Source: Clostridia bacterium (GTDB lineage: Bacteria > Bacillota > TC1 > UBA5767). Taken from it: DNA of 64,000 bases. This document shows positions 588-27,193 of this stretch, one piece after another. Under the pieces are notes generated by a model that saw nothing but the letters and a program-made list of their open reading frames with translations, was not told where the DNA came from and ran no database searches. The stretch lies in NCBI GenBank assembly GCA_016887505.1, contig CP069393.1, forward strand, positions 186,001 through 250,000, read 5' to 3'. Position numbers and translations under genes: made by a program. How positions within the stretch are numbered: the stretch's first letter is position 1; the number at the start of each line of letters is the position of its first letter.

Positions 588-604
588 TGGTTTACCGTCC
601 TTCC

Positions 605-4707: not shown

Positions 4708-4730
4708 TCACTCATTTGGAGGTTAATAAC

Positions 4731-4943
4731 GTGAGCGATAAAAGCATTGAAAAATGGTCTACTTTAAAAGAAGTACAAGAGTATCTCGGTGTAGGCCGTG
4801 AGACCATTCTGCAGTGGATCGCCAAGAGAAATATGCCAGCATATAAAGTCGGGCGACTATGGAAATTCAAGCTGTCCGAAGTTGATGACTGGATTCGCTC
4901 CGGTGGTGCTGCAGATAATTCCGACTTAACGGACACTGATTGA
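4731..4943 (+). CDS. Excisionase-family helix-turn-helix DNA-binding protein (70 aa)
   Basis: The product contains WSTLKEVQEYLGVGRETILQ, then WIAKRNMPAYKVGRLWKFKL and VDDWIRSGG, the full pattern of the small MerR-like winged HTH found in excisionases and in R-M associated regulators. The GTG start at 4731 follows TTGGAGGTTAATAAC; an upstream in-frame TTG is part of that ribosome site and is rejected. It lies 89 bases before the hsdM-type gene and follows the Ig-domain gene by 23 bases. A regulator of the restriction genes is more likely than a true excisionase, since no integrase neighbours it. Confidence 0.75.
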   Translation: MSDKSIEKWSTLKEVQEYLGVGRETILQWIAKRNMPAYKVGRLWKFKLSEVDDWIRSGGAADNSDLTDTD

Positions 4944-5032
4944 TTCCGATTAACAATATTTATAATAAGAAGAAAATAAAATGGGTCGGTTTCTAAATAC
5001 GCATTAGAAGGCCTAGAGATGAGGAGAAAAGA

Positions 5033-7183: not shown

Positions 7184-7194
7184 GGGGTATTGAA

Positions 7195-10413: not shown

Positions 10414-10431
10414 AAACAAAGGAGTAGAACG

Positions 10432-11919
10432 ATGTCATTATTTATCTCGTACAATAGAGAACAAAAAGACTTTGCGGATAAGATAGAGTCCTCCGTCCGA
10501 ACAGTTTGCACTGTCCTGCGTGATACAAATGACATTGCTCCGTGGGCTAGTATTGAGGAATTCATGAATCGGATTCGCCAAGCGAAGTATGCCGTACTTC
10601 TAATATCAGACGAATATTTAAAGTCAATCAACTGTATGTATGAAGCCTGCCAGTTATACAAGGATGTTAACTGGAAATCTCGCACTATGTATGTTGTGCT
10701 TGGGAATGCTGACCTAAATATCTACACTGTAGCGAACCACGAAAGATATATCCGATTTTGGAAGGATAAAAAAACAATTCTTGAAGAACAGATTAAGAAC
10801 TTGCCGGCAGAAAGCATAGACAGCATTACGGCAGAAATTAAACGAGTAAGCGAAATTCTCCTTATGCTCGGTGATTTACTGAAAATTATACGTGACACAA
10901 ACAATATGCAACCAGAAAACACGATAGACGAAATCATTAGCTTTATTACAACTAAATCCGTTCCAAAGGAAGCGAATTTAGGGGAACATTCTCGCGCTAC
11001 ATCGAGTGTGCTGGATAAGACTCTGGTTGATGCCGGGTTTGACGGTGTCTTCTCTGAGGTGCTTCATAGCGAAAAACTGGGGTTGATAAATCCCTACCAG
11101 TTGCGCTTGTTTCAACTGAGCGTGGTTGACAATGCGTTCTCTTTCGATGCCCTAAAAAAGTTTCTATTAAAAAACATAGGACAGTACATCTATTCTCGTG
11201 AACGTATAAAAAAGTACATCGACGACGAGGAGATAATGCTGATTGGGCTTAAAGCTGTTGAGCTTATGAAAGAACGTAGCAATGGAGATTGCAGTTGGCT
11301 GGGTGATGAACTTGGTGATTTAATGTTGTATGTCTTTTTAGAAGGGATACTTAAAGCTCCAAAAGTGTTCAGTAAATTTGATGCTCCCTCTGACGGAGTG
11401 TTGACGACCGGCACAAGCGGCGTTCATTTACTAAAACCCGACGCAGAAGTGCCCTCTTTTCAGATGGTGTTTGGCAAGTCAAGCATTGTGGGCGATCCGA
11501 AAGACTCGATCGACAACGCCTTTGTCACGCTTGAAGCGATTAAAAATGACAGATCTCGAGAAATGCGACTTGTTGAATCCACAGCATTTGATAAAGAATT
11601 TACACCGGAAGTGGCAGAATATCTTAAAAATATTATTCTGCCAAGCAAGGAGAAACGCGTCAGCCATGATACGGCTTTCGGTGTGTTCCTCGGATACTCG
11701 CTTGGCTTAGATGCTGATAAATATACATCAGCTGAGTTTGCTATAAATCTTGAAAGTAAAATGAAACTCGATATCAAAAGCCACGTTTCTTATATAGTTG
11801 ACAAAATCAAAGCGGCAAAAATGGAGCGCTATTCGTTTTACTTCTACTTTCTGCCACTCAACGATGCAGACGGAGAAAAGCAAAGCATCATGCAGTCGAT
11901 TTTAAGAGGAGGGGTGTAG
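10432..11919 (+). CDS. TIR domain fused to a HamA (DUF1837) domain, Hachiman-like effector
   Basis: 495 residues. Residues 1-150 are a bacterial TIR domain: LFISYNREQKDFADKIE at the start and SDEYLKSINCMYE, matching the S-x-x-Y-x-x-S-x-x-C-x-x-E consensus, with E71 the expected NAD-cleaving glutamate. A linker leads to about residues 200-495, which resemble HamA/DUF1837 (WLGDELGDLMLYVFLEGIL, KAPKVFSK, SGVHLLKPD, then the region around 343-355). HamA nucleases carry G-E-x-K at this last site; here it reads FGKSSIVGD, so the acidic residue and following Lys appear lost. It lies one base before hamB and 18 after hsdR. Hachiman HamA/HamB form an antiphage complex; the TIR part as substitute effector is inferred. 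Confidence 0.75.
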   Translation: MSLFISYNREQKDFADKIESSVRTVCTVLRDTNDIAPWASIEEFMNRIRQAKYAVLLISDEYLKSINCMYEACQLYKDVNWKSRTMYVVLGNADLNIYTVANHERYIRFWKDKKTILEEQIKNLPAESIDSITAEIKRVSEILLMLGDLLKIIRDTNNMQPENTIDEIISFITTKSVPKEANLGEHSRATSSVLDKTLVDAGFDGVFSEVLHSEKLGLINPYQLRLFQLSVVDNAFSFDALKKFLLKNIGQYIYSRERIKKYIDDEEIMLIGLKAVELMKERSNGDCSWLGDELGDLMLYVFLEGILKAPKVFSKFDAPSDGVLTTGTSGVHLLKPDAEVPSFQMVFGKSSIVGDPKDSIDNAFVTLEAIKNDRSREMRLVESTAFDKEFTPEVAEYLKNIILPSKEKRVSHDTAFGVFLGYSLGLDADKYTSAEFAINLESKMKLDIKSHVSYIVDKIKAAKMERYSFYFYFLPLNDADGEKQSIMQSILRGGV

Positions 11920-11920
11920 A

Positions 11921-14548
11921 ATGGCCGATAACCCTGGCATCAGTTTAGGTGATGTCATTTTTGCAGGAATTGACAACAACCCCTACCTCAACGAGTTGTA
12001 CGACAATATTTTACATAATTATGCTCTCTCATTGTTCGGAATTACAAATAAAGAGCCTAAACCGGTCGATGTTGCCGATGCGCTCCAATTTGCCGATGTG
12101 TTATCCAAGTCCACTGATGAAGATAATTTGGACAGGCATAAGATTTGGGCACAGGAAATTGTTGCTTTATTGAAAGCCATGTATCCTGATAATCCCGTAG
12201 TTTTAGACTATTTTGGAACAGTGCTTTTAAGTACAGAAAATTATCTTGGACTTGCAAAAAACGTCCCGGGCTTTTGTGGTCGTACTCTGCTTGACAGGTT
12301 TTATACGGAATTTAGCATGGAGTTTTTAAGCATACCTGCTGAACAGGATAAACAATTCTTTCGTTCGCAAAAGGAAGTCTACGATCGTCTAACTGAACCT
12401 TACTTCAGTTATTCAGGCCCCACCTCGATGGGTAAATCCTATATAATGCGCATGTTCATCAAAAAACAGGTTATGGATGGCACAAAAATGAACTTCGCTG
12501 TTATTGTCCCAACTAAGGCTTTAATTAACGAAGTTTATAGCAAAATCATCGAAGATCTGAAAATAGATGATATAACAGGATATCTTTCCGAACGGAATTA
12601 TACGATTATTACCTCAGCAGGAGCGTTGCAGCTAAACAAGGAGCATCAAAACTTCATCTTTGTTTTAACCCCTGAGCGGTTGCTATATTTACTGATAAGC
12701 CACCCTAATATAAAGATTGATTATCTGTTCATTGATGAGGCACATAAAATCTCAGCGAAAGACAGCCGGAGTGCTTTTTATTATAAAGTTGTGGATATGC
12801 TCGATAAGAAGCAAAAACCACATATTATATTTGCTTCACCGAACATTCCCAACCCAGAAGTATATTTGGGATTGATTCCAAATGCCGAATTGAAAGCAGA
12901 TCAGAAATTATCTACCTCCTTCTCTCCAGTGAGCCAAATAAAAACACTAATTGATATGATCGGTGGAGAGGTACAGACATTTAACTCTTACACTGAGCGA
13001 CTCGAAGATGTGTTTGATTTCAAAAAAGGATTCGTCCTCGGGCAAATAATCAATCTCATAAATAGCAAAGGTAACGGCGGTAAGGCTCAGAGCATCGTAT
13101 ATTTTAATTCGAAGGAAAAAGCAGTAGAGTATGCCCTGGATTTTGCAAAGACGCAGCCAGAACAAGATGACCCTGCTCTTATCACATTGGCAAACGAGAT
13201 CAAGAACGTGATCCATGGGGAATACTATCTCGCTAAAATTATAACAAAAGGCGTGGCTTACCATATTGGTTACCTACCTGCTGCCATCCGCTTGCGGATT
13301 GAAGAGTTATACCGCGAGCGTAAAATTCGGACACTCTTTTGCACTAGCACATTGCTTGAGGGTGTAAATCTTCCTGCTGATAATCTTTTCATCACGACTT
13401 ATGGAAAAGGACGCGGAAGGTCAAAGATGAAAGCCGTAGACTTCAAAAACCTCATAGGGCGTGTTGGGCGAATTGAATATAATTTATACGGTAATGTATT
13501 TCTCGTAAGGCTTGAAGGCAATACGAAAACCGAAGATTTTGTGAAATTGTTAAAAGAAAAAGTTCCAGAACAAGAACTTTCGCTCGTATCAGAGCTGGAT
13601 GAAAGCCAGAAAAAACAGGTGGTTGACTGTCTACTTGAAGGTGATATTACTCTCGAAAATCTAAAAACGAAGACGAAGGAGTCATATAAGATTATCCGAA
13701 AATTTGCTGTTATTCTGCTAAGGGATATAACCAATAACAATCACAGTGTTGTCCACCAAGCATTTGAGGCTTACTTGGAAGGTGATGTTAAAGTTCGAAT
13801 TAGAGAAGTGTTTAGGAAAACTGGCAGTGAACCGGACGATGACATAAATGTATCTGTTGACCAAACGAAAAGTCTATATTGGGCAATAAAGAATGATGAA
13901 CTTTGCTATCCTGCTTTAAATTCCGATCGAACAGTTGATTACGATGATTTAATGAATTTCCTGACAAGGTTAAGTCAGGTATTCAATTGGAATAAATATG
14001 AAAGCGATACCATCGGAAATGATAAACGCTTGAAATGGTATGGGGTAATTTTGCGTCGGTGGATTAATGGTCATGGTTTGAGTTTTATTATGAGTGAATC
14101 CATCGATTATTACAGACGGCATCCAGAGAAGAAGGTTTCGATCAACAACCGTCCGGAAATATATAATGGATCTGCGAAACATAAGAACAGCGTTATCGGT
14201 GAGACTTTGGAAGCTATTGAGCATGTTGTTTTATTTAGTCTGGCGAATTATTTCTTGAAGTTCACTGAAGCGTACAAGCGTTATCACAACATTCAGGGAG
14301 ATATGAAAAACGACTGGTATGAATACGTAGAGTATGGAACGACCAGACCATTAACGATTTTCCTTCAGCGAAACGGTTTCTCCCGTGAAACAGCGATGTA
14401 TATTCGTGAACACGTGGACGAATATGTAGTAGATTTGGATATTGAAAATCCGAAACTTCGACGAAGTATAAGAAACTGCAAGAGTGCAAGTGTCAGGAAG
14501 GAAGTTGAGAGTATGCTCTACAACATTCCCGATCTGTTTGTGGATTGA
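11921..14548 (+). CDS. hamB: HamB-like SF2 DEAH helicase, partner of the TIR-HamA protein
   Basis: 875 residues with a Ski2-like helicase core: Walker A GPTSMGKSY (K172), DEAH (272-275), TSTLLEGVNLPADNLF as motif V, and GRVGR (513-517) as motif VI. A long N-terminal helical region precedes the core and a roughly 340-residue C-terminal domain follows, as in HamB. In Hachiman the helicase senses damaged or phage DNA and releases HamA activity. The ATG comes after AAGAGGAGGGGTGTAGA inside the end of the upstream gene, so the pair is translationally coupled. Assignment rests on the partner gene as well as on the helicase, since SF2 helicases alone are not specific. Confidence 0.8.
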   Translation: MADNPGISLGDVIFAGIDNNPYLNELYDNILHNYALSLFGITNKEPKPVDVADALQFADVLSKSTDEDNLDRHKIWAQEIVALLKAMYPDNPVVLDYFGTVLLSTENYLGLAKNVPGFCGRTLLDRFYTEFSMEFLSIPAEQDKQFFRSQKEVYDRLTEPYFSYSGPTSMGKSYIMRMFIKKQVMDGTKMNFAVIVPTKALINEVYSKIIEDLKIDDITGYLSERNYTIITSAGALQLNKEHQNFIFVLTPERLLYLLISHPNIKIDYLFIDEAHKISAKDSRSAFYYKVVDMLDKKQKPHIIFASPNIPNPEVYLGLIPNAELKADQKLSTSFSPVSQIKTLIDMIGGEVQTFNSYTERLEDVFDFKKGFVLGQIINLINSKGNGGKAQSIVYFNSKEKAVEYALDFAKTQPEQDDPALITLANEIKNVIHGEYYLAKIITKGVAYHIGYLPAAIRLRIEELYRERKIRTLFCTSTLLEGVNLPADNLFITTYGKGRGRSKMKAVDFKNLIGRVGRIEYNLYGNVFLVRLEGNTKTEDFVKLLKEKVPEQELSLVSELDESQKKQVVDCLLEGDITLENLKTKTKESYKIIRKFAVILLRDITNNNHSVVHQAFEAYLEGDVKVRIREVFRKTGSEPDDDINVSVDQTKSLYWAIKNDELCYPALNSDRTVDYDDLMNFLTRLSQVFNWNKYESDTIGNDKRLKWYGVILRRWINGHGLSFIMSESIDYYRRHPEKKVSINNRPEIYNGSAKHKNSVIGETLEAIEHVVLFSLANYFLKFTEAYKRYHNIQGDMKNDWYEYVEYGTTRPLTIFLQRNGFSRETAMYIREHVDEYVVDLDIENPKLRRSIRNCKSASVRKEVESMLYNIPDLFVD

Positions 14549-14583
14549 TATTGTCAAGAGAAATACTAAACAGGAGGCGCAAT

Positions 14584-15477
14584 ATGGCCACAAGAGGGAA
14601 AAGTATAAATCTTTATTTAATGGACGGTGAGCCAGTCGGACGCATTAAATGCACACTTGCCAACTGGACTGGTGTGGCCTATAAGATCCCACGCACTGCT
14701 TTAGATCTTTGTAAAGAGCGAGATGATTTGAAGCAAAGCGGCATCTACTTTCTTTTTGGCACATCCGACCAAACAGGTAATAATATCGTCTATGTCGGTC
14801 AAGCAGGCGCACGCAAAAATGGCGAGGGTCTGCTATACCGCTTGCAGGAACATAAACGCAACCCAAATAAGGATTACTGGACGGAAGCCGTTCTCTTTAC
14901 AACCTCCAATAACTCCTTCGGACCAACGGAGATAAGCTATCTTGAAAATCGTTTCTGTGGACTTGCGCTTGCGGCGAAGCGATATGATGTCAGGAACGGA
15001 AACGACCCGACACAAGGTAACATCACAGAGGAAAAAGAAAGCGAGCTTGAAGAATTTGTCGAATACGCCCGCATTGTTATGGGGACGCTTGGACATAAAG
15101 TCTTCGAGCCGCTTGCGGCGCATTCTGCCACTGCATCAGATGATGCTGACGCACACATCGTTATTGCCGACGAGCCGCTGCTCCAGTTTGACAGACCCGC
15201 AGGAAAAGCCATGGGTCATCGCACGAGTGAAGGGTTTGTTGTCCTTAAGGGCAGTGTTCTATCTATCAAGTTACAACGCAGTTGCCCGGAGAACGCTCGA
15301 AAGTTCCGCATGAAATATTCAGATAAGATTGATGCAAACGGCATCTTGATCGAGGATGCTCTTTTAACCAGTCCTTCGGCGGCGGCGGCTTTCGTTGGTG
15401 GTTCCAGCCTCAGCGGAAACATCACATGGAAAACCGCTGATGGCAGAACGCTTAAGGATATCGAGAGCAAGGAGTGA
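14584..15477 (+). CDS. GIY-YIG nuclease with C-terminal DUF4357 domain (copy 1)
   Basis: 297 residues. The nuclease domain shows GIYFLFGTSDQTG, IVYVGQAG, then LLYRLQEHK and SFGPTEISYLENRF, which supply the Y, Y, R, E and N residues of an active GIY-YIG site. The C-terminal part (SEGFVVLKGS, then LTSPSAAAAFVGG and ITWKTADGRTLKDIE) is DUF4357, a domain often joined to nucleases in R-M settings. The start MATRGKS follows AACAGGAGGCGCAAT; a start 13 codons upstream lies inside the previous gene's end and has no site. It ends 8 bases before the helicase at 15486. A close paralogue is at 27567. Confidence 0.88.
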   Translation: MATRGKSINLYLMDGEPVGRIKCTLANWTGVAYKIPRTALDLCKERDDLKQSGIYFLFGTSDQTGNNIVYVGQAGARKNGEGLLYRLQEHKRNPNKDYWTEAVLFTTSNNSFGPTEISYLENRFCGLALAAKRYDVRNGNDPTQGNITEEKESELEEFVEYARIVMGTLGHKVFEPLAAHSATASDDADAHIVIADEPLLQFDRPAGKAMGHRTSEGFVVLKGSVLSIKLQRSCPENARKFRMKYSDKIDANGILIEDALLTSPSAAAAFVGGSSLSGNITWKTADGRTLKDIESKE

Positions 15478-15485
15478 GGTGTTTT

Positions 15486-18377
15486 ATGTCAGTCTTTGTG
15501 GAACATAGAGATAAATTTATACTTGAACCAAAAAGTGGTATCGGCTTAAGAAAATGTCAATTAGGTGCAATTTGGGCGTTAAAAAGTGCTTTCATAGCTA
15601 ACTCGCCTGAGGTTGCAGCTTTAATTAGTATGCCAACAGGATCAGGGAAAAGTGCAATAATGATGGCGGCATGTTTCGAACTGGGTCTTTCCAAGATACT
15701 AATTATTGAACCTTCCAAAGTTTTGAGGAATCAAATATGTGAGCAATTCCGAAGTTTAGACATATTAAAACGAATTGGATGCTTACCTAGTGACTTCCCG
15801 GAAGCCAAGGTGTTTGAAGTTACGCACATCCAATCAGCAGATGATTGGTCTGATATAACTGAGAAAAACGATATAATTGTAGCACATCCAAATAGCATAT
15901 CACCATACTATAAAAGGATATCACCACTCCCGGCAGACTTAATTGATGCGATTTTTATGGATGAGGCTCATCACGAGGCTGCTCCGACATGGAAAGCTAT
16001 AAATACCTATTATAGAAGTGTTAAAAGGATATTTTTGACTGCAACACCATTTCGACGTGACCGAAAAGCCATGGAAGCAAAGTTGATATATCATTATTCA
16101 CTTAAGCAAGCTTTTGATGATAATATATTAAGGCCAATTGATTTTCTAGGTGTTCGAGCTGGATCGAGCGATTATGATAGTGATTCAATACTCATCGAAG
16201 CAGCTAAAAAAGCCTTCAAAGACGAGAAGTCTCGAAATCCTGTTTCCATAATGATTAGAACTGATAGAATTAGTCATACACAACAATTGTTAGAGAGGTA
16301 TAATTCATCTGGGTTCAAAGTGGATGTAGTTCATTCGGATCGAGAAGATAAGGAAAATTTGCGTGTAGTTAATGAGGTCAAAGAAGGCAAACTTGACGGT
16401 CTAATAAGTGTCGGTATGGCTAGTGAAGGTTTAGATATACCCATGTTAAAAATTGCAGTTTTACATACTACACCAAAATCCATCCCTTATACAATCCAAT
16501 TTCTTGGAAGGATATCGAGGCAACCCACTGAACAATCAGGCAACGCAATTTTAATTGCGAACACCGATGAAGTGCGTGGTGAAGTTTATCGTCTATATAA
16601 TTCGGATGAAACATGGGCTAAGCTTGTCCCTCAACTAATTGATGAGAGTATGAGGAAGGCTCGTTATTATAGATCAGTATTAATTGATGATCCTGATTTT
16701 GTTTTGCCTGATTTGAATATTTATTTTAGTGCAATAATTTATGATGTTGAAGATAACTTTACTTTTAATACTGAATTCAATGTGAAGAGCACATCTCCTT
16801 ATAGAATCTCATATATTTCGCAGCAAGATATTAACAACCCACTTGTAGTTATAACTGAAATGGATAAGCCAATTGAGTGGGCGAATAGAGAAATCTATAT
16901 TGGAAATTATTTGGATATCCATATTTTTTATCATGTTCCTGATAAAAACCTTCTTTTCGAATTGACTTCGAGCGAAGAAGCTTTGGATGCATTCTCTGAG
17001 AATTTATATATAGGTGATATTAAGATTATTTCTCATTCAAAACTATATAAAGCTCTATCAAAGTTTGATACCCAAAATTATCTAATGGTTGGTATGAAAA
17101 ATGCGATTATGCCGGGATCATCCCACCCTTCATATAAGACCTTTATTGGAAATAGTGTTCAAGATACCATTAGAAATTCTGAGGGGAGAGTTTTTGGGGT
17201 TGGACATGCACTTATGAAAATGGGGGAAAAGAAGACATGGGGAATTGCAACAAAGAAAGGTAGAGTCTGGGCCATGAAAAGAGGCACACTTGACGAATAT
17301 CAGTCATGGTGTGATGATATAGCTGATTTGCTTACCTCCTGTGCTGATCGGACAACATTACCGGGTCTATCTTTTCTAGCTAGTACAACTCCAATAAATA
17401 TGCTTGATGAGATTCCATTAGCAGTAATTCCTGACGATTCTTTTTTTAGAGCTAATCTCCTTTCAATAAGTATAAAAGGAGATAAAATATATACAAATGT
17501 TGTGCCCAATATTGAACCCCTCTCTTTTGATAAAACCACGGGTAACTTGATAAGTATTTTGTCTATAGAGTCATTCTCTTGTAAGATAATTATGAATTTC
17601 AAAAATTCTCCGTTATGGGCAGTTGTCTCAGATGAAGATATAAAAGTTACATTAGTTAAAAACCAAATCAATGTCACCACTGCAAGTCTGGAGAAGATTA
17701 TAAACGATTTTCCACCCACTCTCATAATGCCAAAGGGTTATATTGTTGAGGGGAGAACCAAAATAACACCCAATAGCTCCGTAGAAAACTTACCAAACGG
17801 ATTGTGGGTTAAAAAGGATTGGAGTAACTGTAACATAAAGGCTGAGGCATATAAGCCAAAACCAAAGCCTAAAGAATTACCAGTGATAAATCAAACTATA
17901 GAATATATCAAAGTCGAATTTGATAGACAATCAGACGTTCTAGTTCTTGATGATGGTGCACATGAAATAGCCGATGTGATCTGGATTCAAGGATCAAAAC
18001 ATATTATCCATTACATACATTGTAAGCCATCAAGTACCTCTAAGCCTGGCTGCCGTAAAGGAGATTGTGATATTGTTTTTACTCAAGCAATGAGAAGTGT
18101 TCACTGGGTGCACTCAGAGTTAATGTTTGAAAGACTGAGCGAGAGACTTGGTGGAAAGTCAAAAATTATTCTTGGGAACCAGCAGTTACTAGATGATATC
18201 GCGAAAAACTTTAGGGTAAACGAATGGCATTACAAAATTGTAGTCGCTCAACCCGGTTTTGATATAGTGAAAGTGTCAAATCGAATTAGGAAAAATAATA
18301 ATATATATGAGTTGGCAATACCCACTTATGAGAGGATTATTGCAGGACTCGCTGACTTTGAAATATGGGGCAGCTAA
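15486..18377 (+). CDS. SF2 helicase with C-terminal PD-(D/E)XK-like domain
   Basis: 963 residues. The N-terminal helicase has MPTGSGKS (K55), DEAHHEAAPTW (D159), LTATPFRRDR, and motif VI around FLGRISRQ, close to the restriction-enzyme helicase group. After a long middle region without recognised domains, residues about 815-900 carry DDGAHEIADVIWI followed by HYIHCKPSS (E827, D830, K847) and FTQAMRSVHW. That pattern recurs at the ends of defence helicases and looks like a PD-(D/E)XK nuclease. The ATG follows GGAGTGAGGTGTTTT; the in-frame GTG at 15474 is part of that site. Coding is strikingly AT-rich compared with hamB. Together with the GIY-YIG gene it may form a two-gene defence unit; this is inference. 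Confidence 0.75.
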   Translation: MSVFVEHRDKFILEPKSGIGLRKCQLGAIWALKSAFIANSPEVAALISMPTGSGKSAIMMAACFELGLSKILIIEPSKVLRNQICEQFRSLDILKRIGCLPSDFPEAKVFEVTHIQSADDWSDITEKNDIIVAHPNSISPYYKRISPLPADLIDAIFMDEAHHEAAPTWKAINTYYRSVKRIFLTATPFRRDRKAMEAKLIYHYSLKQAFDDNILRPIDFLGVRAGSSDYDSDSILIEAAKKAFKDEKSRNPVSIMIRTDRISHTQQLLERYNSSGFKVDVVHSDREDKENLRVVNEVKEGKLDGLISVGMASEGLDIPMLKIAVLHTTPKSIPYTIQFLGRISRQPTEQSGNAILIANTDEVRGEVYRLYNSDETWAKLVPQLIDESMRKARYYRSVLIDDPDFVLPDLNIYFSAIIYDVEDNFTFNTEFNVKSTSPYRISYISQQDINNPLVVITEMDKPIEWANREIYIGNYLDIHIFYHVPDKNLLFELTSSEEALDAFSENLYIGDIKIISHSKLYKALSKFDTQNYLMVGMKNAIMPGSSHPSYKTFIGNSVQDTIRNSEGRVFGVGHALMKMGEKKTWGIATKKGRVWAMKRGTLDEYQSWCDDIADLLTSCADRTTLPGLSFLASTTPINMLDEIPLAVIPDDSFFRANLLSISIKGDKIYTNVVPNIEPLSFDKTTGNLISILSIESFSCKIIMNFKNSPLWAVVSDEDIKVTLVKNQINVTTASLEKIINDFPPTLIMPKGYIVEGRTKITPNSSVENLPNGLWVKKDWSNCNIKAEAYKPKPKPKELPVINQTIEYIKVEFDRQSDVLVLDDGAHEIADVIWIQGSKHIIHYIHCKPSSTSKPGCRKGDCDIVFTQAMRSVHWVHSELMFERLSERLGGKSKIILGNQQLLDDIAKNFRVNEWHYKIVVAQPGFDIVKVSNRIRKNNNIYELAIPTYERIIAGLADFEIWGS

Positions 18378-18771
18378 ATAACAATCGACTAGTTATCAAG
18401 AACGCAAGGTTAAAAATCGGCTCAAAACATAAGTGCCGTCCTCTTAAATCATTATTTACCTATTCGCGCGAAGTGATAAATAGAGAAATACATACCCGGT
18501 ATCAATCTGTAGTTATGGTTCCAACCGGTTTTAGAAACTGATATAACCTTTCAATTTTGCCTACACTATTTAATTATTCACCATAGCTACATTTTTGCAG
18601 GGTATGCAGCAAGTGGGCACCAGCCCCAACTGACCATTAAACGATATTTGTATAAGTATAAAAAGCTCTCTGAGGGTTGACAAAATCCTCCGAAGCCCTT
18701 TGTTTTAAGCCTTTTTCAGCACATATGTGCCGGATAAGGCTTTTTCTTTTTGTATCAAAATCAGCAGGAAC
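18378..18771. other. Non-coding junction between the helicase gene and the truncated hsdM
   Basis: No frame of any quality is seen on either strand. The stretch contains an imperfect hairpin around 18667-18696 and a clear terminator at 18707-18751, then 20 bases leading into the broken end of hsdM. It most likely marks where the defence module was joined to an older type I locus. The missing hsdM 5' end is not found here in any frame. Confidence 0.5.
18707..18751 (+). terminator. Intrinsic terminator after the helicase gene
   Basis: AAGCCTT (18707-18713) pairs with AAGGCTT (18736-18742). The inner part contains the perfect 12-base palindrome GCACATATGTGC (18719-18730), and a T-rich run follows. 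It would stop the 3.9-18.4 kb transcript before the truncated hsdM. Confidence 0.7.
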
Positions 18772-20730
18772 ATAGATCCGACGAGTGGGTCAGGTAGCTT
18801 GCTGATAAATATCGGTCGAAGTGTTGCTAAGCACATAGATGATGACGATAACATCAAATACTATGCTCAAGAGCTCAAGCAAAATACATATAACCTAACT
18901 CGTATGAATATAATAATGCGTGGTATTCTACCGTCTAACATCACGACTCGCAACGGCGATACCTTAGAGGACGATTGGCCGTATTTTGAAAATAGTGATC
19001 CGGTTGGCACGTATAACCCCTTGTATGTAGATGCGGTTGTTTCCAATCCACCGTATTCGCAAAATTGGGATCCAGAAGGCAAAGAAACTGACCCGCGTTA
19101 TGCTCGTTTTGGCCTGGCGCCAAAAGGTAAAGCTGATTACGCTTTTCTACTACACGACCTATATCATATCAAGCCTGATGGCATCATGACCATTGTTCTT
19201 CCACACGGTGTTTTATTTCGTGGTGGTGAAGAGGGTACAATCCGTAAGAATCTGATTGAGAACAACCACATCGATGTCATTATTGGGTTGCCTGTCAATA
19301 TATTCTTTGGTACGGGCATACCAACCATCATCATGGTGCTTAAGCAAAAGCGTGAAAATACTGATGTGCTAATTATCGATGCATCTAAGGGTTTTGTAAA
19401 AGTTGGAAAAAATAATATACTTCAGGCTTCAGACATCAAACGAATTGCAGATACGGTAGCAGCACGTAAAGATGTGTCGAAGTTTTCTCGTGTGGTCTCT
19501 CGAAGTGAGATTCGCAGTAATGAATACAATCTCAACATCCCACGTTACGTTGATTCTTCCGAAGCTCCTGAAAGCTGGGATATTTATGCCTCCATGTTCG
19601 GAGGTATACCTAAAAAGGAAATTGAAGAACTTTCTGACTTTTGGCAGACTTTTCCTGAGCTGAAGACAGATTTGTTTATTAGGGACACTGGTGAGCATGT
19701 AGATGTTGCTGAGGGTAATCTCAAGGATATCATCAAAAATCATCCGAATGTAGTCTCTTTCAAAGAACACTTTGCGAGGGCTTTCGAAGGTTTTGATGTT
19801 GAGTTGTACACCCATCTTATAGAGGGGATGGAGACTTTAAATATTTCCAAGGAAGAAACTGTACTTAGCGATGAAATTTTCAGTCGTTTAGCATCTGTGC
19901 CACTAGTTGATGAATACAAGGCATACCAGCTCCTAAATGATGAGTGGGTCAAGATAGCTGTTGACTTGGAAATGATTCAAACAGAAGGCTTCGAAGCTAC
20001 TAAGCAAGTTGAACCTAACATGGTCTCAAAGAAAAAGAATGGCAAAGATGTCGAAGTTCAAGAAGGTTGGCAAGGTAGAATTATACCATTTGATTTAGTT
20101 CAAGGAGCGCTACTTCACAAGGAAACAGTAGCTTTAAAAGCAAAAGAAGAACGCCTTATACAGGTAAATTCTTTGCAACAAGAAATCTTTGATTCGCTCA
20201 CGGAAGAAGAAAAGGAAGATTTGAACGATGTTCTAAATGACGATAACACTGCATTTCTGACAAGTTCAGTGAGTAAAGTGGCTAAAGCGCTACTTAAAGA
20301 GCTACTTAAAGAGCATGCTGCGGAATACTACGCAGACGATAGCCCAGAGGGTAAGCTTCTTGCCATGAAGAGCTTGCTCGACGAAGAAAAGGCTCTAAAG
20401 AAAGATATTAAGACTGATTCCACAAAGCTGCACTTACTCACTAAAGAAACCATTGAAAACTTGCTAGATGAACAAGTCTATTCTTTACTGGAATTGAAAT
20501 GGATCACTCCACTGATGTCAGAATTACAACAGATGCCGGCAGCTATTCTCGATGACCTTGCAGTGAAGGTACAGGCGCTTGCGGATAAATATTCTATTAC
20601 CCTTTCTGATGTGGAAGAAGAAATAATTGAAACAGAAGGAATGCTCGCGTCCATGCTGGAACAGCTCACTGCCAGCGAAGTGGACATTAAGGGGCTGACT
20701 GAACTAAAAAAACTGTTGGGAGGTGAGTGA
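18772..20730 (+). pseudogene. hsdM: Type I methyltransferase HsdM, 5'-truncated (second system)
   Basis: The frame matches HsdM from SAM motif I onward: IDPTSGSGSLLINIG at the very start, SNPPYSQNW as the N6-adenine motif, GIMTIVLPHGVLFRGG, and a long helical C-terminus. The whole N-terminal domain and the QFYTP block (about 200 residues) are missing. The frame technically stays open upstream to a GTG at 18727, but that codon sits inside a terminator hairpin and encodes no HsdM-like sequence. Without motif X and the N-terminal domain the product should not methylate. hsdS starts 2 bases after the stop, as in an intact operon. An assembly error at 18772 is the main alternative. Confidence 0.8.
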
Positions 20731-20731: not shown

Positions 20732-21973
20732 ATGCTTGAAAAAGCAAAAGTCCCCGCGATTAGGTTCAAAGGCTTTACCGACGCTTGGGAACAGCGTAAG
20801 TTGAAAGAAATTGCAGATAAGGTCGTAGAAAAGAATGTAAAACTGCAATTTACAGAAACATTTACGAATTCGGCAGAGTTTGGAATAATTAGCCAGCGCG
20901 ATTATTTTGACCACGATATTTCAAATGCAGACAACTTGGGCTCCTATTATGTGGTAAGAAATGAGGATTTTGTTTACAATCCAAGAATTTCAACATTTGC
21001 ACCTGTTGGACCAATTAACCGTAATAAATTAGGCAGAAACGGTGTAATGTCACCACTTTATACAGTTTTAAGAACTCATGACATTGATAACACTTTTCTC
21101 GAACAGTATTTTAGGAGCTTATATTGGCATTCGTTTATGAAATTGAACGGAGACTCAGGTGCAAGGTCTGATCGTTTTTCAATTAAGGACTCTGTGCTTA
21201 TTGAGATGCTGATTCCATACCCAGGTTTGAAAGAGCAACTAAAAATTGGGGAATATTTAACAAAACTCGACAACCTTATCACCCTTCATCAGCGTAAGCT
21301 TTTGAAATTGAAAAATGTTAAGAAAGCCATGCTTGAAAAAATGTTTCCCCAAAACGGCAGTAATGTTCCAGAAATTCGTTTTTCTGGATTTACTGATGCT
21401 TGGGAACAGCGTAAGTTGGGAGAGTTAAGCGATTCGTTTGAATATGGGTTAAATGCAGCAGCCACAGAATACGATGGAGAAAATAAATATATACGAATAA
21501 CTGACATTGATGAAGAATCAAGAAGGTTTGTTGAAACTGATCTTACCTCTCCTAAAATTGACTTAAGCAATGCGGAAAACTATAAATTGAAAATCGGAGA
21601 TATTCTTTTTGCTAGAACTGGTGCAAGTGTCGGGAAGTCCTATATTTACAATGAGTCCGATGGATTAGTGTATTATGCAGGATTTCTTATTCGAACAAGA
21701 ATAAAGCCAGAATATAATGCTGAATTTGTTTTTCAAAGCACACTAACTAGTCAATATAATGACTACATTCGAATAAATTCACAACGTTCAGGACAGCCCG
21801 GAGTTAATGCACAAGAGTATGCAGAATTTAGTTTTCTTATCCCTGAATTTGATGAACAATATAAGATTGGTACATTTTTTAGGAACCTTGATAACCTTAT
21901 CACCCTTCATCAGCGTAAGCTTGAAAAATTGAAGAATCTCAAAAAAGCTTTTCTTGAGAAGATGTTTGTATAA
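20732..21973 (+). CDS. hsdS: Type I specificity subunit HsdS, expressed copy of a shuffling locus
   Basis: 413 residues with two TRDs in tandem, each framed by the same conserved pieces: IRFKGFTDAWEQRKL before TRD1 and IRFSGFTDAWEQRKL before TRD2; LDNLITLHQRKLLKLKNVKK and LDNLITLHQRKLEKLKNLKK after them. These helices form the coiled spacer that sets the distance between half-sites. The ATG at 20732 follows TTGGGAGGTGAGTGA; the in-frame GTG at 20723 lies inside that ribosome site. The DNA encoding WEQRKL and LITLHQRK recurs in the silent copies at 25134-26261, so recombination can replace either TRD. hsdR follows 16 bases later. Confidence 0.92.
   Translation: MLEKAKVPAIRFKGFTDAWEQRKLKEIADKVVEKNVKLQFTETFTNSAEFGIISQRDYFDHDISNADNLGSYYVVRNEDFVYNPRISTFAPVGPINRNKLGRNGVMSPLYTVLRTHDIDNTFLEQYFRSLYWHSFMKLNGDSGARSDRFSIKDSVLIEMLIPYPGLKEQLKIGEYLTKLDNLITLHQRKLLKLKNVKKAMLEKMFPQNGSNVPEIRFSGFTDAWEQRKLGELSDSFEYGLNAAATEYDGENKYIRITDIDEESRRFVETDLTSPKIDLSNAENYKLKIGDILFARTGASVGKSYIYNESDGLVYYAGFLIRTRIKPEYNAEFVFQSTLTSQYNDYIRINSQRSGQPGVNAQEYAEFSFLIPEFDEQYKIGTFFRNLDNLITLHQRKLEKLKNLKKAFLEKMFV
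20784..20803 (+). repeat. hsdS recombination repeat, 5' family, copy 1 (before TRD1)
   Basis: CTTGGGAACAGCGTAAGTTG encodes WEQRKL at the entry to TRD1. The same 18-20 bases recur at 21399 and 25717 in this orientation and at 25642 inverted, always in the same reading frame. Confidence 0.85.
21272..21301 (+). repeat. hsdS recombination repeat, 3' family, copy a (after TRD1)
   Basis: The core CTTATCACCCTTCATCAGCG encodes the LITLHQRK segment that closes TRD1. It recurs at 21890 and 26213 in this orientation and at 25192 inverted. Confidence 0.85.
21399..21418 (+). repeat. hsdS recombination repeat, 5' family, copy 2 (before TRD2)
   Basis: Identical 20 bases to copy 1 at 20784, at the entry to TRD2. 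Pairing with the inverted copy at 25642 would invert TRD2, all of hsdR and silent cassette A. Confidence 0.85.
21890..21922 (+). repeat. hsdS recombination repeat, 3' family, copy b (after TRD2)
   Basis: Near-identical to copy a over at least 28 bases, at the 3' end of the expressed hsdS. Pairing with the inverted copy at 25192 would invert hsdR alone. Confidence 0.85.
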
Positions 21974-21989
21974 GAAAGGAGTGTGAACT

Positions 21990-24900
21990 GTGATATTTAA
22001 AACCGAAGCAGAATTTGAAGCAGCCATGATTGCTGCCTTACAAAATAAAGGTTGGGAAAATCAGGTTCTTAAATACCCGACAGAAGATACTTTACTGAAG
22101 AACTGGGCAGATATTCTGTTTGAGAATAATCGTGGTATTGATCGTCTGAATGACGCTCCTTTAACAGATACAGAAATGCAGCAGATTCTAGAGCAAATCC
22201 TGGCTCTTCGAAGCCCAATAAAGCTCAATGGTTTTATTAACGGAAAGACGGTTTCTATCATACGTGATAATCCTAATGATCCTTTACATCTTGGCAAAGA
22301 AGTAAGCCTCAAAATTTATGACCGCCGCGAAATAGCTGCTGGTCAAAGTAGATACCAGATTGCTCAACAACCGAGATTTAAGTCTAAATCAAAGATTCTC
22401 AACGACCGCAGGGGCGATTTGATGCTACTAATCAATGGCATGCCGGTGATTCATCTCGAACTGAAAAAGAGTGGAATTCATGTCAGCCAAGCTTATAACC
22501 AGATTGAGAAGTATTCCGATGAGGGTATCTTTACGGGAATTTTTTCATTGGTGCAGATATTTGTAGCGATGCAGCCGGAAGAGACGGTTTATTTTGCCAA
22601 CCCAGGTCAAGATGGTGTTTTCAATAAGGACTTTTATTTCCATTGGGCAGATTTTAATAACGAGCCTATCAATAGCTGGAAAGATATTGCGACCTATCTT
22701 TTGTCAATTCCAATGGCACATCAGATGATTGGCTTCTACACGGTGGCTGATGATTCTGATGGCGTGCTAAAGGTGATGCGGAGCTATCAGTATTTTGCGG
22801 CCAATGCAATTTCTGATCGCGTTTCAAAGATTGACTGGAGTGAGAAACACCTGCTAGGAGGGTATATTTGGCATACAACAGGGTCAGGCAAAACGATGAC
22901 GAGCTTTAAGTCTGCTCAGCTCATAGCAAACTCCAAGGATGCTGACAAGGTAATCTTCCTAATGGACAGAATAGAGCTTGGTACACAGTCGCTTCGCGAG
23001 TATCGTGCTTTTGCGGAAGACCATGAAGATGTCCAGGCAACTGAGGACACCCATGCCCTTATTGCTAAGTTGAAAAGTAAAAATCCTGCCGATACGCTGA
23101 TAGTCACTTCGATTCAAAAAATGAGTAATATTAAGGATGAAGAAGGTGGTTTGAATTCTGCTGATATTGTAGTGATGAACTCAAAACGCATCGTCTTTAT
23201 TGTTGATGAAGCACATCGTTCTACTTTTGGGGACATGCTGATTACCGTTAAACAGACCTTTCCAGGTGCTGTCTTTTTTGGATTTACCGGTACACCTATT
23301 CAGAAGGAGAATCAGAAAAAGAAAAACACGACATCGACAGTCTTTGGTGATGAACTGCACCGCTATAGTATCGCTGATGGTATTCGTGACAAGAATGTGC
23401 TTGGCTTTGACCCTTACAAGGTCCTGACGTATAAAGATATTGATATACGTAGAGCAGTGGCACTGATGAAAGCGAATGCTACAAAGGAAGAAGATGCTAT
23501 CAAAGATTCGGAGAAAGCAAAAAAGTATTACTACTACATGGATACAGCCAAAGTAAAAATGGCAGGACACCGTGATAAAAGTGGTAAATATGTTCAAGGA
23601 ATTGAAGACTATTTGCCAAGAGAACAATATGAATGTGTTAAACATAGGAAAAAGGTCATTCGTGATATTGTAGATAACTGGATGCGTTTGAGTCATGCCT
23701 CAAAGTTCCACGCGATTTTTGCTACTAGCAGTATCGCGGAAGCCATAGAATACTATAGATTGATTAAGGAATTAAAGAGTAATTTAAAAATCACAGCACT
23801 CTTTGATCCAAACATTGATAATAATGGCGGTGTGAAGTTCAAGGAAGATGGTCTTGTTGAAATTCTTGAAGATTATAATGAAAGGTTTGAACAGGACTTT
23901 ACCTTAGCCACCCATGGAAAATTTAAAAAGGATATTGCAGCGCGGTTGGCGCACAAAAAGCCCTATGAACGTATTGAACGAACCCCCGAAAAACAGATTG
24001 ACCTTTTAATTGTTGTCGATCAGATGCTCACAGGTTTTGACTCTAAATGGGTGAACACCCTTTATATGGATAAGGTGCTCAAATTTGAGAACATTATTCA
24101 GGCATTTTCTCGTACAAACCGTTTGTTTGGTCCGGATAAGCCTTTCGGAACGATTCGTTACTATCGTTATCCAAGCACAATGGAAAGAAATATCAATGAA
24201 GCGGTAGCTCTGTACTCAGGCAATAAGCCACTTGGCTTGTTCGTAGAACATTTGGATTATAACCTTGAGAAGATGAATCAAATATTTACGGATATCTCAT
24301 GCCTGTATGCGTTGGCTGGTATTACGGATTTTTCTCACCTGCCAGATGATTTGGATAATTGCAGCAGGTTTGCCAAGCTGTTTAGTAGTCTTAATGAATT
24401 TATGGAAGCAGCAAAGATTCAAGGTTTCACATGGAAACAACAAAATTATCCTTTTGAGAATCCTAAAAAAGTTATTGAAATGACATTTGATGAGAACACT
24501 TATCTGATCTTGGCTTTGCGTTACAAAGAATTACTCACAGGAGGTGGAGGTGGTAGCGGCAGTGATATACCATTTGATATTGATAGTAATCTAATAGCCA
24601 TCGACACTGGTAGAATTGATACCAATTACATGAACTCACGATTTGATAAATATCTTAAAGTGTTGCGCCAAGATGATATTGACAACGACCAGCTTCAAGC
24701 AACACTAGATGAGTTGCACAAATCTTTTGCGACTCTTACCCAAGAAGAACAGAAGTATGCCAATATTTTTATCCATGATGTTCAAAGTGGAAATGTTGAA
24801 CTTGAGGATGGCAAGTTTTTTAGGGATTACATCACGGAATACCAGTTCTGCGCAAAAAAAGAGCAAGTCCACCAAGTAGCTAATGCTTTAGGGATTGATA

Positions 24901-25133
24901 TTCAAAAATTGGTAAACCTTATGAATGTCGATATTCAAGAAGCGAATATCAATGAATATGGTAGGTTTGATGATCTGAAGAAAACTGTAGACAGAGATAA
25001 AGCAAGAGCTTATTTCGAAGCATTAGAAGGTACAAGTATAACAGCATTACGCCTGAGCATAAAAATTGAAAAGCTACTCAAAGACTTTATCCTCAGGGGA
25101 GGTTTTGATATCGACGAGCCTGAAAACAAATAA
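21990..25133 (+). CDS. hsdR: Type I restriction enzyme subunit R (second system)
   Basis: 1047 residues. The nuclease domain gives RRGDLMLLINGMPVIHLELK (D143, E157, K159). The helicase has TTGSGKT (K301), DEAH (from D406), FFGFTGTPI and a later QMLTGFDSKWVNTLYMDK block typical of HsdR. GTG start at 21990 follows AAGGAGTGTGAACT. It lies between the expressed hsdS and the silent hsdS cassettes, inside the region bounded by inverted repeats. DNA inversion could therefore reverse the gene and cut it off from the upstream promoter. Its stop codon abuts the stop of the oppositely oriented silent cassette with no gap. The gene itself looks intact although its hsdM partner is broken. Confidence 0.92.
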   Translation: MIFKTEAEFEAAMIAALQNKGWENQVLKYPTEDTLLKNWADILFENNRGIDRLNDAPLTDTEMQQILEQILALRSPIKLNGFINGKTVSIIRDNPNDPLHLGKEVSLKIYDRREIAAGQSRYQIAQQPRFKSKSKILNDRRGDLMLLINGMPVIHLELKKSGIHVSQAYNQIEKYSDEGIFTGIFSLVQIFVAMQPEETVYFANPGQDGVFNKDFYFHWADFNNEPINSWKDIATYLLSIPMAHQMIGFYTVADDSDGVLKVMRSYQYFAANAISDRVSKIDWSEKHLLGGYIWHTTGSGKTMTSFKSAQLIANSKDADKVIFLMDRIELGTQSLREYRAFAEDHEDVQATEDTHALIAKLKSKNPADTLIVTSIQKMSNIKDEEGGLNSADIVVMNSKRIVFIVDEAHRSTFGDMLITVKQTFPGAVFFGFTGTPIQKENQKKKNTTSTVFGDELHRYSIADGIRDKNVLGFDPYKVLTYKDIDIRRAVALMKANATKEEDAIKDSEKAKKYYYYMDTAKVKMAGHRDKSGKYVQGIEDYLPREQYECVKHRKKVIRDIVDNWMRLSHASKFHAIFATSSIAEAIEYYRLIKELKSNLKITALFDPNIDNNGGVKFKEDGLVEILEDYNERFEQDFTLATHGKFKKDIAARLAHKKPYERIERTPEKQIDLLIVVDQMLTGFDSKWVNTLYMDKVLKFENIIQAFSRTNRLFGPDKPFGTIRYYRYPSTMERNINEAVALYSGNKPLGLFVEHLDYNLEKMNQIFTDISCLYALAGITDFSHLPDDLDNCSRFAKLFSSLNEFMEAAKIQGFTWKQQNYPFENPKKVIEMTFDENTYLILALRYKELLTGGGGGSGSDIPFDIDSNLIAIDTGRIDTNYMNSRFDKYLKVLRQDDIDNDQLQATLDELHKSFATLTQEEQKYANIFIHDVQSGNVELEDGKFFRDYITEYQFCAKKEQVHQVANALGIDIQKLVNLMNVDIQEANINEYGRFDDLKKTVDRDKARAYFEALEGTSITALRLSIKIEKLLKDFILRGGFDIDEPENK

Positions 25134-25191
25134 CTAAATATGAATATTTGGTGAGAAAGAGTCAAACAGGTCTTGGCTCTTTTCTTTTTGC

Positions 25192-25223
25192 GGCTTACGC
25201 TGATGAAGGGTGATAAGGTTATC
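25192..25223 (-). repeat. hsdS recombination repeat, 3' family, copy c (inverted, in cassette A)
   Basis: Reverse complement of the copies at 21272, 21890 and 26213, again encoding LITLHQRK in the cassette's frame. Its inverted orientation relative to the expressed gene is what permits inversion. Confidence 0.85.
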
Positions 25224-25641
25224 GAGTCGCTGAAATAGTAATCCGAGTTGCTTCTGCTCCGCTAAATTTTCCGGTGCAATGATGCAAATCCTCATCATTG
25301 TGTCAGCATTCAGTTTAGCACGACCACCACCGACCAAATAAGGCTCAATATTAGTTTGAGAAATAACATATTTTAAGAACTTGTTGTCTGCAATTTCCTT
25401 TTTCGCTTGAAGCACGTGAGCGTGGTTGTTTACCCATATTCTTCCATTTACATACTGTACAGGGTAGTTCTTTAAATCACTAGCACCATCTTCCGCGACA
25501 AGTATAAATTCACCATCGTGTGTATAACCTTCGACATAATCTTGAATACCGTTTGCTCCATAGTAAGGTGTACTTCCTGAGACTCTATCTAACGCCGTAA
25601 TTGGGACTCGCAAATTGTCGTATCTATCGGCCCATGCATTT

Positions 25642-25659
25642 AACTTACGCTGTTCCCAA
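25642..25659 (-). repeat. hsdS recombination repeat, 5' family, copy 3 (inverted, in cassette A)
   Basis: AACTTACGCTGTTCCCAA is the reverse complement of the repeat at 20784 and 21399. It encodes WEQRKL in cassette A. Together with copy 4 at 25717 it forms a long inverted repeat around a short centre. Confidence 0.85.
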
Positions 25660-25664
25660 TTGTT

Positions 25665-25716
25665 AGTGATTAAGACACATTAACAGAGACTTCTCAAATT
25701 CATAGTCTTAATCACT
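25665..25716. repeat. Inverted repeat between the two silent hsdS cassettes
   Basis: AGTGATTAAGA (25665-25675) and TCTTAATCACT (25706-25716) are perfect inverted copies that extend the 5' repeats of cassettes A and B. The 30-base centre has no ribosome site or start codon in either cassette's frame, consistent with both being silent. Confidence 0.7.
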
Positions 25717-25736
25717 CTTGGGAACAGCGTAAGTTG
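25717..25736 (+). repeat. hsdS recombination repeat, 5' family, copy 4 (in cassette B)
   Basis: Identical to the copies at 20784 and 21399, same orientation as the expressed gene. It encodes WEQRKL in cassette B. Confidence 0.85.
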
Positions 25737-26212
25737 AGTGGAATATTATGCTTATTAAAAGATGGAACCCATGGGACTCATCAAGATGTTGAAGACGGAC
25801 CATTACTTTTGAGTGCTAAAAATATAAAAAACGGACAAATATGTTGGGATAGTTGTGATCGAAGAATATCGGGAAGTGAGTATGAAAAGATACATTCTAA
25901 TTTTACTTTAGAAAAAGAAGATATTCTTCTAACAATAGTGGGTTCAATTGGAGAAACCGCTATTCTAAAGGATAATTATAGAATAACATTCCAAAGAAGT
26001 GTTGCTTATTTAAGACCAAAAACTAATGTGAATCCTGAATTTTTGTATAGTGAAATACAGTCGCCAAAATTTCAAAAAGAATTAATGAATCGAAAATCGA
26101 CATCGGCACAGCCGGGAATATATCTTGGAGACCTATCAGTTATTCCTGTTTCTTATCCTAAAAATTTAGAGGAACAGAAACAGATCGGTAGTGCTTTTGT
26201 CAATCTTGACAA

Positions 26213-26239
26213 ACTTATCACCCTTCATCAGCGTAAGCC
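26213..26239 (+). repeat. hsdS recombination repeat, 3' family, copy d (in cassette B)
   Basis: ACTTATCACCCTTCATCAGC and the following GTAAG match copies a and b. With copy c at 25192 it bounds the two silent cassettes as a 1-kb invertible block. Confidence 0.85.
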
Positions 26240-26266
26240 ACTTCTGCAAAGAAGGAGGTAAGCAGT

Positions 26267-27193
26267 ATGTCAAATGAAGTTAGTAATGCAGATATTTTCT
26301 GCGATTATTATGCAAAATGGATTGATGTATACAAAAATGGTGCAGTTAGAAAAGTGACTATGGATAAATACTTGATGACACGCAAGTGGCTGGTCAAGCT
26401 TGTTCCGGGTTTGAGAATGAATGAACTTGATCGAACTCGATACCAACAATTACTCAATGAATATGCTGAGCACCATGAAAGGCAGACAGTTATGGATTTT
26501 CATCATCAGCTTAAGGGAGCAATTCTTGATGCTGTAGATGAAGGCTTGATTGACCGTGACCCTACTCGTAAAGCTATCATCAAAGGTAAAATTCCACGAG
26601 CCAAGAAAATAAAATATCTGAATCAATTTCAGCTTCAAACTTTGATTACATCTTTAGAACTAAAAGAAAAAATCAACTGGGATTATTTTATATTGCTGAT
26701 ATCAAAGACTGGTATGCGGTTCTCCGAAGCACTTGCGTTAACATCAGCGGATTTTGATTTTAGGAATCAGTCTGTGACTATAAGTAAGACTTGGGATTAC
26801 AAAGGAAATGGGGGCTTTTTACCAACAAAAAATCGATCTTCGATACGCAAAATACAGATTGATTGGCAAACTGTGATTCGGTTTTCTGAGCTAACAAAAG
26901 GGATACCGCATGACAAGCCAATATTCGTAGATGGAAGGGTTTATAACTCGACCGTCAACCACAAGTTAGGACGCCTATGCAAGCTGTGCAAAATTCCAGT
27001 GATATCTATTCATGGTTTGCGACATACGCACGCATCTCTCTTGTTGTTTGCTGGCGTATCTACTGCCAGTGTAGCAAGAAGACTTGGGCATTCGAGTATT
27101 AACACAACACAAAAGACCTACTTGCATATCATTCAGGAACTCGAAAATAAGGACGTGGACTTGGTGATGCGATTGCTGGCTGGGCTTTCGTAA
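26267..27193 (+). CDS. Tyrosine recombinase, probable hsdS invertase
   Basis: 308 residues. An N-terminal SAM-like core-binding domain is followed by a catalytic domain with SKTGMRFSEALAL (R151), IHGLRHTHAS (H249, R252), RRLGHSSINTT (H275) and nucleophile Y285. It follows cassette B by 5 bases with a GAAGGAGGTAAGCAGT ribosome site. Recombinases in this position in type I loci (for example PsrA or CreX type) invert hsdS segments at short repeats. An element integrase is the alternative, but it lies 4.2 kb from the tRNA and directly beside the shuffling repeats. Confidence 0.85.
   Translation: MSNEVSNADIFCDYYAKWIDVYKNGAVRKVTMDKYLMTRKWLVKLVPGLRMNELDRTRYQQLLNEYAEHHERQTVMDFHHQLKGAILDAVDEGLIDRDPTRKAIIKGKIPRAKKIKYLNQFQLQTLITSLELKEKINWDYFILLISKTGMRFSEALALTSADFDFRNQSVTISKTWDYKGNGGFLPTKNRSSIRKIQIDWQTVIRFSELTKGIPHDKPIFVDGRVYNSTVNHKLGRLCKLCKIPVISIHGLRHTHASLLLFAGVSTASVARRLGHSSINTTQKTYLHIIQELENKDVDLVMRLLAGLS

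What the first reader, a model, noticed from the sequence alone, without database searches (positions are those of the whole stretch)
21399..25659. hsdR lies inside the invertible segment
In well-known shuffling loci hsdR is outside the switch. Here the inverted partners sit on either side of hsdR, so swapping TRD2 with cassette A (21399-25659), or inverting between 21890 and 25223, also flips the 3.1-kb hsdR away from the upstream promoter. Specificity change could thus be coupled to an OFF state for cutting, giving time for remethylation.
Basis: partly seen in the sequence, partly recalled or inferred. Interest (0 to 1): 0.65.

Follow-up and report, generated by a model that had tools for sequence, protein, structure and literature searches.

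The report
Restriction gene inside specificity-switching DNA segment
A bacterial DNA-cutting defence system keeps its spare target-recognition modules on the far side of its cutting gene, so swapping modules by flipping DNA must also flip the cutting gene and clip the recognition protein, but in this cell the whole system is already silenced because a virus has inserted into its partner methylation gene.

Summary
The repeats and coordinates are real. hsdR (21990-25133) lies between the TRDs of the expressed hsdS and their only inverted partner, silent cassette A (25192-25659). The repeats are the sites known to recombine in Listeria ST8 (PMC4783014), and a related recombinase's inversion at the same core was caught in one assembly.

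Two things change the interpretation. First, in all 288 arrangements reachable by site-matched inversions, hsdR orientation is locked to the HsdS C-terminus: hsdR forward means a full helix, hsdR reversed means cassette A's short tail starting with proline. So the reversed state probably turns off methylation as well as cutting; it is an unfinished half-step, not 'methylate first'. Across 8 hsdR-inside loci hsdR is forward in 8/8, while the recombinase gene, where it lies inside an inverted pair, is 13 forward to 13 reversed.

Second, hsdM here is split by a 53.7-kb prophage: its first 214 codons lie 53.7 kb upstream, and rejoining gives one 865-aa frame. So in the sequenced cell this system lacks HsdM and its operon promoter whichever way hsdR points.

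The layout is not unique: a Mycoplasmopsis cynos locus shares it. Verdict: new variant of a known kind; interpretation partly supported.

The parts
18775..20730 (+). 3' part of hsdM (from motif I DPTSGSG, residue ~215); 5' part is 53.7 kb upstream, outside the window
18774..18777 (.). right end (attR) of the prophage in hsdM; the two junctions share the dinucleotide GA
   Evidence: uninterrupted site in L006
20723..21973 (+). expressed hsdS with TRD1 and TRD2; C-terminal helix 376-415
20785..20802 (+). 5' recombination site a (WEQRK, TTGGGAACAGCGTAAG)
21273..21299 (+). 3' recombination site a (LHQRK, CTTCATCAGCGTAAG)
21400..21417 (+). 5' recombination site b, start of TRD2
21890..21920 (+). 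3' recombination site b, end of TRD2
21921..21973 (+). native hsdS tail (LEKLKNLKKAFLEKMFV), second half of the D2 helix; physically linked to the hsdR 5' end
21990..25133 (+). hsdR, inside the inverted pairs b/c and a/c
25155..25183 (+). terminator-like hairpin just after hsdR
   Evidence: similar hairpin in L032 (sequence)
25192..25226 (-). 3' recombination site c
25134..25659 (-). silent TRD cassette A, no hsdS start region, tail RKPQKEKSQDLFDSFSPNIHI
25642..25659 (-). 5' recombination site c
25660..25718 (.). A-B spacer, homologous to L005 in the same orientation and to L006 in reverse orientation
25719..26261 (+). silent TRD cassette B (5' site d 25719-25735, 3' site d 26212-26238), tail RKPLLQRRR overlapping the int ribosome-binding site
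26267..27193 (+). tyrosine recombinase (Phage_integrase; relatives sit beside hsdS genes in many Firmicutes)
1..18776 (.). right third of the 53,676-bp prophage inserted in hsdM (C1:151101-204776), carrying a second type I RM (5033-10413), Hachiman hamA/hamB (10432-14548) and other defence-like genes

Best explanation
This is a recombinase-driven, specificity-switching EcoR124-like type I R-M locus of layout hsdM-hsdS-hsdR-cassette A(reverse)-cassette B(forward)-recombinase. A x B inversions reshuffle which silent TRD faces hsdS. Moving a TRD into the expressed hsdS by inversion takes two inversions that each span hsdR, one at the 5' sites and one at the 3' sites. After the first, hsdR points away from the operon promoter and HsdS ends in the short cassette A tail, so the locus is most likely fully OFF. 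After the second, hsdR, the full-length HsdS helix and the new TRD are all in place. Reversed hsdR is therefore a transient or disfavoured half-step rather than a stable restriction-off, methylation-on state. In the sequenced cell the whole locus is silent anyway because a prophage splits hsdM. Shown: layout, sites, topology lock, prophage split, forward-only hsdR in relatives, activity of related recombinases at the same core. Inferred: that inversion spanning hsdR happens, that the short-tailed HsdS is inactive, and that excising the prophage restores the system.
For: Sites: identical cores across genera and the published Listeria ST8 inversion sequences (PMC4783014). Activity of the family: genome G449 holds two contigs identical except for a 2729-bp, 100% identical inversion with crossover in CTTCACCAGCGTAAG, recombinase 66% identical to the window's. 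Spacer A-B reversed in L006 relative to the window and L005, a footprint of A x B inversion. Topology: all 288 inversion-reachable states have either hsdR forward + native tail or hsdR reversed + tail A, 144 each. Tail: the native tail is conserved in 15 of 16 expressed HsdS and predicted as the end of a 40-residue helix (mean pLDDT ~63 overall, ~80 in the helix); in the window, L005, L006, L032, L099, L186 and L191 no silent cassette carries it. Truncated pneumococcal hsdS alleles gave no detectable methylation (PMC4948785). Orientation: hsdR 8/8 forward, hsdM 7/7, recombinase gene 13:13 (Fisher p 0.013 for hsdR, 0.001 for hsdR+hsdM). Prophage.
Against: No read data: no hsdR-spanning inversion has been seen in this genome or in any locus of this layout. 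8/8 forward also fits inversions that never span hsdR. Loci are related and few, so the p-values are rough. The effect of tail loss is inferred; half-S and circularly permuted S subunits can work if a dimerisation helix is kept (PMC3874165). In M. cynos some silent units carry full helices, so the tail lock is weaker there.
Confidence: 0.55

Rival explanations
1. One reading: hsdR reversal is a true restriction-OFF, methylation-ON state that gives time to methylate the genome with the new specificity before cutting resumes.
For: Inversions that change hsdS must flip hsdR; no promoter-like site faces reversed hsdR in the spacer.
Against: Reversed hsdR always comes with loss of the conserved HsdS tail; 0 of 8 loci caught reversed; if the 3' sites recombine first, the new TRD arrives together with hsdR ON and there is no grace period.
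Confidence: 0.17
2. Inversions spanning hsdR do not occur or are negligible; only A x B shuffling occurs, and TRDs enter hsdS by excision/reintegration between direct copies (as in the pneumococcal tvr locus) or by homologous exchange.
For: hsdR 8/8 and hsdM 7/7 forward versus recombinase 13:13; A x B footprint in L006; several relatives have tandem direct-repeat cassettes between hsdS and hsdR with no inverted copy (L189, L194, L196); precedent PMC6265443.
Against: Excision between direct TRD2 and B copies would remove hsdR and A, and all eight loci keep hsdR; the cassette next to hsdR is inverted in the four A(-)B(+) loci, useless for excision; Listeria shows 5' and 3' inversions at the same sites.
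Confidence: 0.25
3. The switch is a relic in this genome: prophage insertion in hsdM abolished selection and the arrangement no longer does anything.
For: hsdM split, operon promoter 53.7 kb away; decayed-looking HTH region upstream of hsdM.
Against: hsdS, hsdR, recombinase and the rejoined hsdM are all open frames, so the insertion is recent or reversible; the same layout with intact hsdM occurs in L005 and L006.
Confidence: 0.2

Closest known systems
Listeria monocytogenes ST8/CC8 inverting type I locus (PMC4783014)
   Same: Same two recombination sequences (agcttgggaacagcgt; ...cttcatcagcgtaag) and a tyrosine recombinase in the locus; the L. innocua relative (L075) is 64% identical to the window's
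   Different: Order hsdR-hsdM-hsdS-int-hsdS'; hsdR and hsdM are outside, only the recombinase gene is flipped
Streptococcus pneumoniae cod/ivr locus (SpnIII, PsrA/CreX)
   Same: Silent hsdS copies, inverted repeats, tyrosine recombinase; truncated hsdS alleles without detectable methylation (PMC4948785)
   Different: hsdR and hsdM upstream and outside the inverted segments; long IR2/IR3 as well as 15-bp IR1
Mycoplasma pulmonis hsd1/hsd2 (HvsR)
   Same: [quoted passage not shown] some rearrangements abolish R-M activity (PMC4948785); from own knowledge hsdR/hsdM lie between the two hsdS genes
   Different: hsdM moves too; two full hsdS rather than half cassettes; not sequence-compared here
Mycoplasmopsis cynos locus (L077)
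   Same: hsdM-hsdS-hsdR followed by inverted recombinase and hsdS units, so hsdR lies inside the pair; same 3' site DNA
   Different: Recombinase inside the segment; long array of silent units, some with full helices; no 5' core match at 3 mismatches or fewer
ICEs with serine-integrase triplets inserted in hsdM (PMC4701971)
   Same: Mobile element with tandem serine integrases disrupting hsdM with a 2-8 bp repeat
   Different: Here a tailed-phage prophage with two tandem serine integrases

Membership tests
Type I R-M system, EcoR124-like (type IC-like) | hsdR, hsdM, hsdS with family domains | tested here: met
   Pfam EcoR124_C, HSDR_N, N6_Mtase, Methylase_S; hsdM is split by the prophage and its N-terminal part lies outside the window
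Type I R-M system, EcoR124-like (type IC-like) | Active modification and restriction | not testable with these tools
   needs methylome and efficiency-of-plating data; expected inactive while hsdM is split
Inverting (phase-variable) type I R-M locus | Silent hsdS sequence with inverted repeats matching the expressed hsdS | tested here: met
Inverting (phase-variable) type I R-M locus | Locus-encoded tyrosine recombinase | tested here: met
   Phage_integrase 1.8e-21; relatives next to hsdS genes
Inverting (phase-variable) type I R-M locus | Inversion observed | tested here: inconclusive
   observed for a related recombinase (G449) and as an A-B spacer footprint in L006; not observed in this genome, single assembly
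Locus with hsdR inside the invertible segment (M. pulmonis-like) | hsdR between inverted hsdS partners | tested here: met
   also L005, L006, L032, L099, L186, L191, L077
Locus with hsdR inside the invertible segment (M. pulmonis-like) | Reversed hsdR found in some cells or strains | tested here: not met
   0 of 8 assembled loci; minority states cannot be excluded
tvr-type excision-reintegration locus | Direct TRD repeats with circular intermediates | tested here: inconclusive
   direct repeats exist (TRD1, TRD2, B); circles not testable

The most novel reading that the evidence does not exclude
A class of type I R-M loci, found in several Firmicutes lineages and in a mycoplasma, in which topology forces every specificity change to pass through a state with restriction off and a clipped specificity subunit, i.e. 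a built-in fail-safe against self-cutting during specificity switching.
Probability: 0.3. Interest if true: 0.65.

Novelty: new variant of a known kind. Interest (0 to 1): 0.45.

Why it matters
How a cell changes R-M specificity without cutting its own chromosome is an open question for shuffling type I systems. This layout makes it testable: the nuclease gene and half of the HsdS dimerisation helix are locked into one invertible unit, so each single inversion gives a predictable state. It also warns that a window reading can miss the dominant fact, here a prophage that splits the methyltransferase gene and carries its own type I system and Hachiman into the disabled host locus.

Tried and rejected
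Looked for reversed hsdR or hsdM in related loci: none among 15. Checked whether site conservation depends on the recombinase: CTTCATCAGCGT codons are nearly fixed in loci with it and looser without, but the 5' site is also conserved in many loci without it, so this control is only supportive (the 3' test used a wrong pattern and was redone). Promoter scan gave no excess over shuffles. L105 looked at first like a reversed-gene state but is a locus that has lost hsdM. Rfam found only a tRNA. Virus-collection relatives of the recombinase mostly lack hsd genes nearby (about 50-59% identity); L150, L151 and L152 do lie beside hsd genes, and L150 is cut off before hsdR. Searches centred on mycoplasmas could not be run (no genome handle), and the M. 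pulmonis primary paper asked for is not held.

Full report
OBSERVATION. The inverted repeats exist at the stated coordinates, and hsdR is wholly between them. The gap between the hsdS stop and the hsdR start is 16 nt, with a ribosome-binding site and no room for a separate promoter. A terminator-like hairpin follows hsdR (25155-25183), and a hairpin with a T-run is at the same place in L032 (sequence). Promoter-like motifs in the locus are no more frequent than in shuffles.

RELATIVES. The same order hsdM-hsdS-hsdR-A(-)-B(+)-recombinase occurs in Desulfosporosinus sp. Tol-M (L005) and Peptococcaceae UBA5767 (L006, same genus as the window genome by genome search), and with an extra cassette in RUG342 (L032). 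Further loci with hsdR between inverted hsdS sequences are L099, L186, L191 and Mycoplasmopsis cynos L077. Between the window, L005 and L006 the TRDs differ at every position while the two site sequences stay nearly the same.

SITES AND ACTIVITY. The 5' site (TTGGGAACAGCGTAAG) and 3' site (CTTCATCAGCGTAAG) match the two recombination sequences reported from isolate comparisons in Listeria monocytogenes ST8 (PMC4783014). In genome G449 two contigs are the same locus in two states: flanks over 99% identical and a 2729-bp segment inverted at 100% identity, with crossover inside CTTCACCAGCGTAAG. In L006 the A-B spacer aligns only in reverse to those of L005 and the window (scores 77.6 reverse vs 24.5 forward for L005; 55.5 vs 32.0 for the window; shuffled maximum about 44-45). 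This is a footprint of A x B inversion, not of hsdR inversion.

TOPOLOGY. I enumerated all arrangements reachable by inversion between like sites (5' x 5', 3' x 3') from the window arrangement: 288 states. In 144 hsdR is forward and hsdS ends in its native tail; in the other 144 hsdR is reversed and hsdS ends in the cassette A tail. No state breaks this rule, because the native tail is attached to the hsdR 5' end and the A tail to its 3' end. The native tail is conserved in 15 of 16 expressed HsdS proteins and is the second half of a predicted 40-residue helix, residues 376-415. Silent cassettes of the window, L005, L006, L032, L099, L186 and L191 end 3-26 residues from the start of LHQ without it, often with proline right after RK. 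By analogy with truncated pneumococcal alleles that gave no detectable methylation (PMC4948785) I infer that the reversed state is inactive for methylation too. That inference is the weakest link.

ORIENTATION COUNTS. Relative to the expressed operon, hsdR is forward in 8 of 8 loci of this kind. hsdM is forward in 7 of 7 loci where it lies inside an inverted pair (L100, L102, L104, L121, L192, L151, L074). The recombinase gene inside an inverted pair is 13 forward and 13 reversed (Fisher 0.013 for hsdR, 0.001 for hsdR plus hsdM). The two G449 states are counted once on each side. So inversion is frequent in this family, but arrangements with hsd genes reversed are rare, short-lived or not formed.

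PROPHAGE. The window's hsdM begins at motif I. Its missing first 214 residues are at C1:150458-151099, 95% identical to L006 HsdM. Joining the flanks at the shared GA gives an uninterrupted 865-aa HsdM, 743 identities over L006's 862-position reading. Between lie 53,676 bp with two tandem serine integrases near the left end, holin, tape measure, major head protein, portal, terminase and replication genes, and, in the window, a second type I R-M (M-S fusion and R), Hachiman hamA/hamB and further defence-like genes. ICEs using serine-integrase triplets to enter hsdM are known (PMC4701971). Therefore in the sequenced cell this system has no intact HsdM and its hsdS-hsdR are cut off from the operon promoter in either hsdR orientation.

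VERDICT. Observation confirmed. Coupling of specificity change to hsdR inversion is topologically forced if inversion is the route. The proposed benefit (cutting OFF while methylation proceeds) is weakened by the tail lock. The layout is a variant of known inverting type I loci, with M. cynos (tested here) and M. pulmonis (own knowledge, PMC9465063 in part) as precedents for hsdR inside.

Noticed in passing
window 1-18776 (genome C1:151101-204776): A 53.7-kb tailed-phage prophage is inserted in hsdM with a 2-bp shared core; it carries a type I R-M with an M-S fusion, Hachiman and a DUF4357 gene near its right end.
   Followed up: partly
window 14545-15477 and 27567-28469; L005 11701-12591: Related DUF4357 genes (PADLOC candidate PDC-S14) sit on both sides of the hsd locus, and in L005 one sits between hsdR and cassette A next to a duplicated hsdR 3' end.
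   Followed up: no
L113 and L114 (genome G449): Two inversion states of one hsd locus preserved as separate contigs in one assembly, mapping the crossover to a 15-bp core.
   Followed up: yes
L100, L102, L104, L121, L192, L151: Recombinase loci of order (hsdR)-hsdS-hsdM-cassette-recombinase-cassette(-), where hsdM rather than hsdR lies inside the inverted pair.
   Followed up: partly
L189, L194, L196, L187: Tandem forward TRD cassettes or hsdS copies between hsdM and hsdR with the recombinase after hsdR and no inverted copy, suggesting an excision-type variant.
   Followed up: no
L080 (Ligilactobacillus salivarius plasmid): A relative of the recombinase (56%) sits beside oppositely oriented GbpC/Spa adhesin genes instead of hsd genes.
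   Followed up: no
window 25660-25718: The A-B spacer is conserved between genera although it is non-coding; its role is unknown.
   Followed up: partly
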